In this document: positions 48,091 through 52,234 of the stretch, one piece after another
Position numbering within the stretch: position 1 is the first letter of the stretch
Layout: every line of letters starts with the position of its first letter
Translations under genes and position numbers: made by a program
Assembly (NCBI RefSeq): GCF_004363805.1
Contig: NZ_SNZP01000003.1
Location: 228,435-292,434, forward strand
Origin: Paludibacterium purpuratum
GTDB lineage: Bacteria > Pseudomonadota > Gammaproteobacteria > Burkholderiales > Chromobacteriaceae
Direction: 5' to 3'
Length of the DNA stretch: 64,000 nucleotides
Notes under the pieces: model-generated
Database searches by the model: none
What the model was told of the DNA's origin: nothing
What the model saw: the letters and a program-made list of their open reading frames with translations, nothing else

Positions 48091-50463
48091 GTGACTATCC
48101 GCAGTCGAATCGCATTGTTGGTGCTGGCGAGTTTCCTGGCCATTCTGACCATTGGCGGCTACGCGATCTGGCAGGCCGACGCCAACGCGCGAGCGGTCCG
48201 CTCGGTCACCGAAGGGGCGGTGCCCAGCGCCTTGGCCTCGTCCGACCTGGTCTCGACCCTGAAGGACGTGCAGCTCGCCACCATGAATATTCTGCAGGCC
48301 AGCGACGAGCGTTTGCTGGCGCAGGCCCATGAACAACTGGGCGCCAGCGAACAGGCATTGAAAGCACAACTCGCCTTGCAGGCCAGCCTGGCCGCCAACG
48401 ACGTGCAGCGCGGCTTGGTGGTGCAGGCGCAAGACGTGCTCGACAACTATTTCGATGCCATCGGCGCGACCGCCCACTTCAAGCAGGTCGGCCAGAACGA
48501 TATGGCGGCCGCCACCTTCGCCGCCGGCGTACAGCAATATCAAGACAACCTGCAACAGATCGTCGCCACCTTGCGCGTGGAGAAGACGCGCAGCAAGGAC
48601 GACGCCATCCAGGCGCTGCAGCGCAGCCTGGCGCGCACTCTGACCACTCTGTCGCTGGTGACCGTCGCCACCTTGCTGTTGTTGGTGGCTTTGGGCTGGC
48701 TGCTCTATCGCCAGATCGTGCGGCCGATCAGCCGCATGCAGCAGACCATGAGCGAGATCGCCGACAACCAGGATTTCTCGCGCCGAGTCGCCGTCGAGCG
48801 CGAGGACGAAATCGGCAAGTCGGTCATGGCCTTCAACAGCATGGTGGCGCGCATCGAGGAACGCACCGCTTTGCTGCGCCAGAAGACCAGCGACATCCAG
48901 AGTATGTTGCAGAACATTCCGCAGGGGATCCTGACCCTGGTCGAGGGCGGCACGATCCACCCGGAATACTCGGCGCACCTGGAGAGCATTCTGGAAACAC
49001 GCGACATCGCCGGGCGCCACATCATGGCGCTGCTGTTCGCCGACACCGGCCTGGGGGCCGATGCGCTGTCCCAAGTCGAGGCGGCGATTGCCTCTTGTCT
49101 CGGCGAGGACAGCATGAATTTCGATTTCAACCGGCATCTGTTGGTGGGCGAATTGACCAAGCAGCTGCCTGGCGGCCGGATCAAGACCCTGGATTTGAGC
49201 TGGTCGGCCATCGCCGGCGATGACGGCACCGTGGCGCGCTTGATGCTGTGCGTACGCGATGTGACCGAACTGCGTGCGCTTGCGGCGGAAGCCAACGAAC
49301 AAAAGCGCGAATTGGCCATCATCGGCGAAATCCTGGCGGTGGCGCAGGAGAAATTCCACGATTTCATCGTCGGGGCGCTGAAGTTCATCGCCGACAGCGA
49401 GCAATTGCTGCGCGATCACCCCAACGGCAACGGCGAGGTGATCGCACAGTTGTTCCGCAACTTGCACACCATCAAGGGCAATGCCCGCACTTACGGCCTG
49501 GGGCATCTAACCGACACCGTGCATCAGGCGGAGCAGACTTACGAATACTTGCGCCGGCCGCAACCGGCCATCGCTTGGGATCAGTCGCAGCTGCTATTGG
49601 AGTTGGAGTCGGTGCGCGGCGCCGTCGAGCATTACGCCCGCATCAACGAAGTGAGCCTGGGACGCAAGGGGCCTGGCCGGCCTGGCGGCGCCGACCGTTA
49701 CTTGTTGGTGGATCGCCAGCAGATCCGCGATACGCTCGCCCGTCTGGAAAAGGTCAACACCGGCAACCTGCATGAACTGATCGCCGCGCATCAGGCCATG
49801 TGCGCCTTGTTCAACCGCATCGGCACCGAGCCGCTACGCGAGATGCTGGCCGGTGTGCTCGACTCGCTGCCTTCGCTGGCGCGCGAACTGGGCAAGGCGG
49901 TGCCGAACGTGGTGCTGCAAGACAACGGCATCGTCATCCGCAGCCAGGCCTCCGGCATATTGAAGAACGTTTTCATGCATTTGCTGCGTAATGCGATCGA
50001 CCATGGACTGGAGGCAGAGGACGAACGCGTCGCGCTGGGCAAACCGGTCGCCGGCACCCTGCGCCTCGGTCTGCAATTGGCGGACGGCAAGCTGACCCTG
50101 GTGCTTGGCGACGACGGTCGCGGCCTGGCGCTGGGGCGCATCCGCGAGCGGGCGCAGGCACAAGGCTTGATCGCCGCCGACGCTGTGCTGAGCGACGAAG
50201 CCGTGGCCCAGTTGATTTTCCGTCCGGGCTTCTCCACCGCCGCGCGCGTGAGCGAAGTGTCCGGGCGCGGGGTAGGGATGGACGCCGTTCAGTCGTTCGT
50301 CAAACGCGAAAACGGCCAGATTGTCCTGCGCTTCCTGGATAACGAGGCCGGCGCGGACTTCCGTCGCTTCGAGACCGTGCTGACATTGCCGGACAGCTAC
50401 GCCGTGCGCATCGAGGATGCCGCTCCGGCCCGGAAGGCTGTCGGCGAGCCCGAATTTTTTTGA
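48091..50463 (+). CDS. Membrane CheA-like kinase: HAMP, Hpt and HATPase domains
   Basis: 790 residues. Helices at about 8-26 and 184-206 bracket a four-helix-type sensor domain; a HAMP (206-260) and a PAS-like segment (264-400) follow. An Hpt domain (about 410-500) carries H459 in LHTIKGNARTYGL, the CheA P1 signature. The C-terminal ATPase (about 580-770) has HLLRNAIDHGLE, DDGRGLALG and GRGVGMDAVQ, which are CheA-like. There is no P5/CheW domain, so it cannot dock to a chemoreceptor array in the usual way. It probably phosphorylates itself on H459 and passes phosphate to the CheY-like protein encoded 26 bases later. It looks like a membrane sensor fused to a stripped CheA. Confidence 0.88.
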   Translation: MTIRSRIALLVLASFLAILTIGGYAIWQADANARAVRSVTEGAVPSALASSDLVSTLKDVQLATMNILQASDERLLAQAHEQLGASEQALKAQLALQASLAANDVQRGLVVQAQDVLDNYFDAIGATAHFKQVGQNDMAAATFAAGVQQYQDNLQQIVATLRVEKTRSKDDAIQALQRSLARTLTTLSLVTVATLLLLVALGWLLYRQIVRPISRMQQTMSEIADNQDFSRRVAVEREDEIGKSVMAFNSMVARIEERTALLRQKTSDIQSMLQNIPQGILTLVEGGTIHPEYSAHLESILETRDIAGRHIMALLFADTGLGADALSQVEAAIASCLGEDSMNFDFNRHLLVGELTKQLPGGRIKTLDLSWSAIAGDDGTVARLMLCVRDVTELRALAAEANEQKRELAIIGEILAVAQEKFHDFIVGALKFIADSEQLLRDHPNGNGEVIAQLFRNLHTIKGNARTYGLGHLTDTVHQAEQTYEYLRRPQPAIAWDQSQLLLELESVRGAVEHYARINEVSLGRKGPGRPGGADRYLLVDRQQIRDTLARLEKVNTGNLHELIAAHQAMCALFNRIGTEPLREMLAGVLDSLPSLARELGKAVPNVVLQDNGIVIRSQASGILKNVFMHLLRNAIDHGLEAEDERVALGKPVAGTLRLGLQLADGKLTLVLGDDGRGLALGRIRERAQAQGLIAADAVLSDEAVAQLIFRPGFSTAARVSEVSGRGVGMDAVQSFVKRENGQIVLRFLDNEAGADFRRFETVLTLPDSYAVRIEDAAPARKAVGEPEFF

Positions 50464-50489
50464 TCGATTTGTTTTAGAGAGGTTGTGTC

Positions 50490-50891: not shown

Positions 50892-51674
50892 ATGAATGTC
50901 GTTTTTGCCGGCCTTGTGCTGGTGTTGTTTGTGTCGTTGGTGGTTTTTCTGTGTGTATGGCATGGCGTGCGTTTGCGCCGCCTGCGTCGACAAGTGGCGG
51001 AACGCGATCGTCTGATCGCCGAATTGCGAGATCGCGCGCCGGTCGACGCCATCGAGGCGCGCTATCTGGCGCGTATCGCCGAGCAGGAGGCGGCATTCGC
51101 CGCAGAGCGTACACAGTGGCAGGCAAGCCGGGAGGCCGACGCGCAGGGGGAGCTGGCGCGCATCGATGCCGCCCGTGTCGAGGCCCAGGCCGCAAGCGAA
51201 CAGCAACTTAGCCGCCATTTCGAGCGGCTATGCGACGATTTGCGCGGCGAACAGGCCATCTTGACGCAGGAATTGACGCGTCTGCTTGGCCTAGTGCAGA
51301 CGGTCGAACGCTGGCACGACGAAATGCAGACCATCCTGACCAACAATCGTCGGTTGAAAGAGCAGAACGAAAGCTTTGCCACCATCGTGAAAAGCGTGGT
51401 GATGCTGGCGCTCAACGCCGCCATCGAGGCGGCACGCGCCGGCGAGCACGGTCGCGGCTTTGCCGTGGTGGCCGACGGCGTGCGCGCATTGGCGCAGGGC
51501 GCCGGCGAGCTGTCGGGCGAATACAAGAAAAACCTGGAGCGCAACGACCTGATCACCACGACCACGTTCCAGGACCTGCAAGCCAGCGGCAACATGATCC
51601 GCACGGCGATCTTCAGCCTGCGTTCCGCCAGCGACCGGGTGTTCGCCCGACTCGACGCACCGGAGGCCGCATGA
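50892..51674 (+). CDS. Miniature methyl-accepting-chemotaxis-like protein
   Basis: 260 residues: one N-terminal membrane helix (about 3-23), a long charged coiled coil (30-130), then a short signalling hairpin with the MCP tip pattern, in SVVMLALNAAIEAARAGEHGRGFAVVADGVRALA. There is no periplasmic sensor and no HAMP, and the hairpin is much shorter than in full MCPs. With no CheW encoded nearby it may be an adaptor for the cassette's kinase. Ends in the start codon of the CheX-like gene (ATGA). Confidence 0.82.
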   Translation: MNVVFAGLVLVLFVSLVVFLCVWHGVRLRRLRRQVAERDRLIAELRDRAPVDAIEARYLARIAEQEAAFAAERTQWQASREADAQGELARIDAARVEAQAASEQQLSRHFERLCDDLRGEQAILTQELTRLLGLVQTVERWHDEMQTILTNNRRLKEQNESFATIVKSVVMLALNAAIEAARAGEHGRGFAVVADGVRALAQGAGELSGEYKKNLERNDLITTTTFQDLQASGNMIRTAIFSLRSASDRVFARLDAPEAA

Positions 51675-52234
51675 TCGCTTCCACGTCGGCCGAGGCGCTC
51701 GACCAACTCTATTTGCAGGCTTTGCACGATAACTGCCCGGACGAGCAGGGTGCCGCCAGCCGGGTAACCGTCTTGGGCGACAAGCTGCCCGTGATCGACC
51801 GGCAGGAACTGATCTTGCTCAATATTTCCAGTTACCACTTCCGCTTGGTCAATTGGCTGTACTTCGACGACAGCGCGGCACTACGTTCGTCGCTGGCGCG
51901 GTTGTTGCGCAGCCCGGTACCGTTGTCCGGCAGCGCCTTGGCCGACGCCCACGGCGAGATGGCCAATATGATTTGCGGCTCGGTCAATCGCGGTCTGTGC
52001 AACGCCTTCCACCATGTCGGTATGTCGACGCCGTTGGCGCTGGAGCGGCAGTGCTTGGCGCATTTCGATATGCTCAAGCCCGCGCTTAAGCGCAGCTATC
52101 AAGTGTCTTTTTCCGACGATGCTCGCTTTTGGCTCACCAGCAGCCTGCACCTGACACCCGGTGCAAGCTTCGAATTCCACTACCAACGTCCGACAGTGCC
52201 CGCCGATAGCGTCGGCGAACTCGAACTTTTCTGA
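51671..52234 (+). CDS. CheX-type CheY-P phosphatase (predicted)
   Basis: 187 residues with no membrane segment. ADAHGEMANMICGSVNRG carries D92xxxE96xxN99xxxG103, the CheC/CheX/FliY active-site pattern in which Glu and Asn position water for dephosphorylating CheY-P. The rest is divergent, so a fold assignment is needed. ATG 51671 overlaps the upstream stop, and the larger frame from 51230 is a shadow of the MCP-like gene. It completes the cassette with an off-switch. A 7-bp hairpin without a U-tract (52247-52275) follows. Confidence 0.72.
   Translation: MIASTSAEALDQLYLQALHDNCPDEQGAASRVTVLGDKLPVIDRQELILLNISSYHFRLVNWLYFDDSAALRSSLARLLRSPVPLSGSALADAHGEMANMICGSVNRGLCNAFHHVGMSTPLALERQCLAHFDMLKPALKRSYQVSFSDDARFWLTSSLHLTPGASFEFHYQRPTVPADSVGELELF

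What the first reader, a model, noticed from the sequence alone, without database searches (positions are those of the whole stretch)
48091..52234. Compact CheA/CheY/MCP/CheX-like signalling cassette with no CheW, CheR or CheB
Seen: four adjacent same-strand genes encode (1) a HAMP membrane kinase with a CheA-type Hpt (H459) and ATPase but no P5/CheW domain, (2) a lone CheY-like receiver, (3) a 260-residue MCP-like protein with a helix, coiled coil and MCP tip but no sensor or HAMP, and (4) a protein with the CheX/CheC motif DxxxExxNxxxG. The last two overlap by ATGA. Known: CheX/CheC remove phosphate from CheY-P, and CheA Hpt domains phosphorylate CheY. Inference: this is a self-contained phosphorelay with its own off-switch and a membrane adaptor, distinct from chemotaxis arrays. 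The output could be motility, surface adhesion or polarity.
Basis: partly seen in the sequence, partly recalled or inferred. Interest (0 to 1): 0.8.

Follow-up and report, generated by a model that had tools for sequence, protein, structure and literature searches.

The report
CheW-free CheY relay with docking tails
A compact four-gene operon, kept together in about thirty other genomes and there usually with a fifth gene, encodes a membrane kinase, a single CheY switch protein, a chemoreceptor-tip protein and a predicted CheX-fold protein but no CheW, the linker of chemotaxis arrays; it is likely a separate on/off relay for CheY, whose off-switch proteins share an unusual C-terminal tail predicted to grip their target.

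The parts
48091..50463 (+). K: membrane CheA-like kinase; 4HB-type periplasmic region, HAMP, PAS-like domain, Hpt with H459, CheA-type ATPase, no P5
50443..50463 (+). last codons of K (GEPEFF-stop), matching the end of the fifth gene E of the relative L020/L060: scar of a deletion of E
50490..50855 (+). Y: stand-alone CheY-type receiver, D53
50892..51674 (+). M: N-terminal hydrophobic segment, variable middle, conserved MCP signalling tip; no HAMP match
51671..52234 (+). X: predicted CheX-fold protein with the D92-E96-N99-G103 motif
52214..52231 (+). C-terminal tail GELELF of X, low confidence (disordered) in the model, conserved in relatives

Best explanation
A conserved operon encodes a membrane CheA-like kinase without the array-coupling P5 domain, a lone CheY, an MCP-tip protein and a predicted CheX-fold protein, and it likely works as a CheW-free phosphorelay in which the kinase would phosphorylate CheY and the CheX-type protein would remove that phosphate. 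Inferred steps: a signal at the 4HB/HAMP/PAS-like part of K would set autophosphorylation of H459; the phosphoryl group would go to D53 of Y; X, and in most relatives the second CheX-type protein E, would take it off with the E/N pair. The C-terminal GELELF tail that X and E share lies in a disordered end and is predicted to dock the phosphatase on Y, much as the CheZ tail docks on CheY. In this genome a deletion removed E and left its last codons on the kinase, which may give the kinase its own Y-docking tail. M would hold the complex at the membrane through its MCP tip. The output is most likely flagellar behaviour, since Y has no output domain and every carrier tested has FliM.
Against: No activity has been measured. 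X scores below Pfam's CheX cut-off. The tail also resembles an MCP tether tail: a host MCP ending GEWEEF scores 12.0, above both CheZs (11.0 and 9.9). The two CheZs are homologues and count as one case. A PDB search with an E-tail peptide found no CheZ, only one weak unrelated match. The test set aside 54 of 1379 C-termini by a rule of mine, and one true X tail (L084) stayed in the background. The CheZ-like residues before GELELF are in E, not in X. The FliM association is not corrected for kinship, and 135 of 200 genomes of the order have FliM anyway. E is missing from 7 whole genomes, the window's included, so it is dispensable. In L037 only a shortened M frame and X were found.
Confidence: 0.6

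Rival explanations
1. The cassette is an accessory input to the ordinary chemotaxis array: M's MCP tip would join receptor arrays through the host's CheW and CheA, and Y would act as a phosphate sink or competitor for the canonical CheY.
For: All 31 carrier handles tested have CheW elsewhere (two handles, G212 and G263, look like one genome), and the window's genome has cheA, cheW, cheR, cheB, cheY and cheZ genes on contig C20. M keeps the core of the tip (NAxIEAARxGxxGRGF in 23 of 23).
Against: K has no P5 match and no CheW was found in the 34 cassette loci. The residues just before the tip core (KSVVM in the window) differ from the QTN of E. coli receptors (the latter recalled). CheW is expected wherever flagella are.
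Confidence: 0.2
2. The GELELF tail is not a Y-docking peptide but a tether to another partner (M, K, or a CheR/CheB-like protein), in the manner of the C-terminal pentapeptide of MCPs.
For: A host MCP tail, GEWEEF, scores 12.0 against the E-tail profile, above both CheZ tails (11.0 and 9.9). Tail position and final F are the same.
Against: The aromatic residue that the MCP pentapeptide needs (recalled consensus) is L, I, M or P in every cassette tail listed. No CheR, and no CheB beyond receiver-level matches, was found in the cassette loci.
Confidence: 0.3
3. GEPEFF at the end of the window's kinase is a neutral scar and does nothing.
For: None of 119 other listed kinases and none of 30 kinases in the loci ends this way; the latter include all six other genomes without E (G099, G204, G210, G213, G214, G257). 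Two of six residues differ from GELELF.
Against: The tail kept G, E, E and F at the positions conserved in X and E, and the frame runs to E's own stop.
Confidence: 0.5

Closest known systems
CheA-CheW-MCP chemosensory systems
   Same: CheA-type Hpt and P4 ATPase (35% identity to CheA P4 in the best P4 match), a CheY, an MCP tip, a CheY-phosphatase fold
   Different: kinase is itself a membrane sensor with HAMP and a PAS-like domain and no P5; no CheW or CheR and no full CheB found in the loci; the MCP-like protein has no HAMP match and matches only part of the signalling domain
CheX phosphatases (Thermotoga, Borrelia, Vibrio)
   Same: predicted fold and the E/N motif
   Different: extra conserved C-terminal GELELF tail; in E an additional N-terminal region of about 150 residues; low sequence score
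CheZ
   Same: C-terminal tail of similar type on a CheY phosphatase
   Different: unrelated fold (recalled); the tail likeness is short
Membrane sensor histidine kinases with HAMP and PAS
   Same: membrane sensor with HAMP and PAS-like domain
   Different: Hpt placed before a CheA-type P4; no receiver in the chain

Membership tests
CheA (published core: P1, P3, P4, P5 in all surveyed CheA; PMC10782961, passages seen, some from the abstract) | P1/Hpt with phosphorylatable His | tested here: met
   PF01627 35.1 bits; H459 invariant in 25
CheA | P3 dimerisation domain | tested here: inconclusive
   helices at 542-599 in the model; CheA P3P4 chains match with poor rmsd
CheA | P4 CheA-type ATPase | tested here: met
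CheA | P5 (CheW-like) domain | tested here: not met
   no CheW match at E<=1; the ATPase ends near residue 775 of 790
Chemosensory array system | CheW coupling protein in the gene set | tested here: not met
   no CheW match in 34 cassette loci; control contig positive
Chemosensory array system | CheR/CheB adaptation pair in the gene set | tested here: not met
   no CheR match; CheB matches at most 39 bits, against 388 (E. coli CheB) on the control contig
MCP | signalling tip | tested here: met
   PF00015 62.9 bits, core invariant in 23
MCP | HAMP and full signalling/methylation helices | tested here: not met
   only profile positions 17-97 of 172 matched, no HAMP listed
CheX | CheX fold | tested here: met
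   predicted model
CheX | conserved E and N of the active site | tested here: met
   E96 and N99 invariant in 18; aligned to CheX 6vpw
CheX | Pfam CheX gathering score | tested here: not met
   22.0 against 27 for X; relatives P0014 and P0016 reach 27.2 and 28.8, P0005 only 17.3
CheX | phosphatase activity on CheY~P | not testable with these tools
   needs an assay
CheZ-type docking tail | C-terminal peptide binding CheY | tested here: inconclusive
   sequence likeness only; no CheZ found in the PDB by an E-tail peptide
MCP CheR-tether pentapeptide | aromatic residue fourth from the end (recalled consensus) | tested here: not met
   L, I, M or P in all cassette tails listed

The most novel reading that the evidence does not exclude
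This is a class of chemosensory-type system that needs no CheW array: a sensor-kinase CheA, one CheY and two CheX-type phosphatases that find CheY by a common C-terminal docking peptide. In this genome evolution has moved the peptide from a lost phosphatase onto the kinase, turning an off-switch tether into a substitute for CheA's missing CheY-binding P2 domain.
Probability: 0.25. Interest if true: 0.75.

Novelty: new variant of a known kind. Interest (0 to 1): 0.55.

Why it matters
It would show that CheA-type phosphotransfer to CheY can run without CheW, P5 or arrays, as a portable operon, and that CheX-type phosphatases can be aimed by a short tail as CheZ is. The tail core is six residues long and the system sits in a genome with a full chemotaxis set, so signal insulation between two CheY pathways in one cell becomes directly testable. 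My ten literature searches (open-licence papers only, listings seen) listed no paper that I could recognise as describing this set; that is no proof that none exists.

Tried and rejected
Considered and rejected: chance adjacency (the set recurs in 30 of 34 loci); K as an ordinary CheA (no P5); a Neisseriales-only feature; a conserved functional neighbour naming the output. For the last, a crude ORF clustering of the flanks of 26 loci showed flank clusters shared by near relatives, one (c17) shared by two lineages (L019, L032), and none shared widely once clusters c4, c5, c6, c7 and c15 were set aside; those I took, by position or label, to be frames opposite cassette genes or receiver-like proteins. 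This is weak evidence of absence.

Led nowhere: a single-protein scan of genome contigs with X (31 stretches, none confirmed), replaced by a scan with the alignment (20 loci of 47 stretches); a PDB search with an E-tail peptide; E's N-terminal region, which Pfam does not name in the E proteins scanned and which the PDB profile search matches to a receiver only at E 0.57. PAS in K is below Pfam cut-off, so the PAS-like label rests on the model. The K model search was led by an integrative WalK model, CheA P4 chains and sensor-kinase chains, many with poor rmsd. Frequency of E: 13 of 398 genomes of the phylum matched, 4 strongly (E below 1e-90) and 9 weakly over part of the profile; in the order 7 of 200, 5 strongly. 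Frequency of X: 7 of 200 in the order and 9 of 61 in the family, the window's own genome counted in both. V. cholerae VC0377, a CheX-family protein named in PMC8789113 (passages seen), was noted but not compared. PMC3945109 and PMC2577667 were read in passages only and held nothing decisive.

Full report
What is there. The four genes lie at the stated places: K 48091-50463, Y 50490-50855, M 50892-51674, X 51671-52234, all on the + strand, M and X overlapping by ATGA. Pfam gives K HAMP, Hpt and HATPase_c above cut-off and nothing for CheW/P5; Y a receiver; M the MCP signalling domain over profile positions 17-97 of 172; X CheX below cut-off (22.0 against 27). By sequence K's ATPase is CheA-type: the best PDB matches are CheA chains. 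In 25 aligned kinases H459 and the ATP-binding motifs are invariant. The K model (mean pLDDT 81.3, pTM 0.43) has long N-terminal helices, an alpha/beta domain at about 275-391 that I read as PAS-like (Pfam PAS only at E 0.03-0.07), Hpt helices, P4, and a low-confidence end 777-790.

The set is conserved and self-contained. Relatives of X: 18 proteins, the window's own included; 7 of 200 genomes of the order, own genome included; 20 loci in named genomes, among them Chromobacterium, Paludibacterium, Silvimonas, Pseudogulbenkiania, Pseudomonas MAGs and Ideonella; 9 of 61 genomes of the family, own included. The kinase search gave 3451 proteins at E<=0.001 among the 8000 candidates scored, which may include ordinary CheA proteins; the E search gave 1579. 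I read 39 relative loci, of which 5 were duplicates by shared DNA, leaving 34. Orders: K-E-Y-M-X 12, K-Y-M-X 6, K-M-X-E-Y 6, M-X-E-Y-K 4, M-K-X-E-Y 1, K-M-X-Y 1; the other four are L029 (E-Y-M-X) and L031 (M-X-E-Y with X in two frames), both near contig ends, L037 (a shortened M frame and X only; cause not examined) and L067 (a lone E). So 30 of 34 have K, Y, M and X, 23 of these also E, and every locus is on one strand. Several loci are close kin (five Pseudomonas-type MAGs look like one lineage), so 30 is not 30 independent cases. No CheW and no CheR match was found in the 34 loci, and CheB matches were at most 39 bits, at receiver-type genes; on the host's che contig the E. coli queries scored 388 (CheB) and 277 (CheR), and the host's own CheW 279.

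The fifth gene. Between K and Y, or between X and Y, most relatives have E, about 325 residues. Its C-terminal half matches Pfam CheX above cut-off (39.2 bits) and solved CheX/CheC-like chains, with E220 and N223 invariant in 16. Its first 150 residues or so have no named domain. E was not found in the window's genome. One search tested 12 genomes picked by hand: the window's, seven that lack E at the cassette and four that have it there. Five had E (the four, and G219 outside the locus read); seven had none.

The tail. The 120 listed E proteins all end in a variant of GELELF; of 18 X proteins 17 end GELELF and one GELEMF; in the loci 32 of 33 X ends (L031's inner fragment set aside; L017 ends GMLELF) and 26 of 26 E ends fit one pattern. 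The end is of low confidence in the X model, as a disordered tail would be. A DNA pattern for G-E-x-E-[FLIMV]-F-stop occurs twice in the 4.0-Mb genome, at the ends of K and X, and its reversed control not at all. Of 120 listed kinases only the window's ends so, and none of 30 kinases in the loci does.

Why K has it. Against the same-genus relative L020/L060, window DNA follows the end of K up to about 50440 and from about 50442 follows the end of E and the spacer to Y. The simplest account is a deletion of E that left its last codons, in frame, on K. The same-genus genome G257 also lacks E but has no such tail, so the losses look separate. Whether GEPEFF works is unknown.

What the tail may do. 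A profile of the last 14 residues of 120 E proteins was scored on 1379 C-termini of open frames from the window and loci; 54 ends were set aside by a rule on their last five residues. Of the remaining 1325, E. coli CheZ (11.0) ranks 4 and the host's CheZ (9.9) ranks 6, themselves counted. Above them stand an X tail that my rule missed (L084, 28.4), a frame in L017 that is probably not a gene (13.0), and a host MCP ending GEWEEF (12.0). A PDB search with an E-tail peptide did not find CheZ. [quoted passage not shown] I favour Y-docking because both carriers are predicted to act on Y and no CheR was found in the loci, but a tether to another partner stands as a rival at 0.3.

M and Y. In 23 aligned sequences (window and 22 loci) Y is invariant at DVNMPN around D53 and at GWIVKPF; M has a hydrophobic N-terminus, a variable middle and a conserved tip core. 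No HAMP is matched in M.

Output. All 27 carriers tested encode FliM, against 135 of 200 genomes of the order; all 31 carrier handles have CheW elsewhere. The window's genome has cheA, cheW, cheR, cheB, cheY and cheZ genes on another contig. This favours a motility output or cross-talk, without correction for kinship.

Comparison with the known. [quoted passage not shown] K lacks P5, so it may work like a CheA but fails that definition. X belongs with CheX by predicted fold and motif. The whole is a new variant of a known kind. What is shown: genes, conservation, tail, deletion scar; predicted: the fold. What is inferred: all phosphate flow, docking, M's role, output.

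Noticed in passing
window 52403-53704: A MurA-like gene (EPSP_synthase family) follows the cassette; the genome has another at C23:1229-2470 (33% identity). In G258 the close relative of this gene also lies next to the cassette, in G257 it does not.
   Followed up: partly
window 53714-54814: Ddl-like (D-Ala-D-Ala ligase type) gene after the MurA-like one; named by eye, not searched.
   Followed up: no
window 54990-61047: A TpsB-type outer-membrane transporter frame followed by a long repeat-rich TpsA-type exoprotein frame; named by eye, not searched.
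   Followed up: no
L067 7270-8241 (G060 contig 14): A stand-alone E paralogue ending GELEFF with no K, Y, M or X in the 16 kb read, in a genome that also has the full cassette.
   Followed up: partly
L090 5444-7873 and 10932-12092: Two host MCPs with C-terminal tails GEWEEF and GSVDLF that score near the top against the E-tail profile.
   Followed up: partly
L031 8001-8573: X of this MAG lies in two frames (frameshift or assembly error); left as it is.
   Followed up: no
L037 7619-8573: Only a shortened M frame and X were found although 8 kb upstream was held; possibly a decayed cassette or an assembly fault.
   Followed up: no
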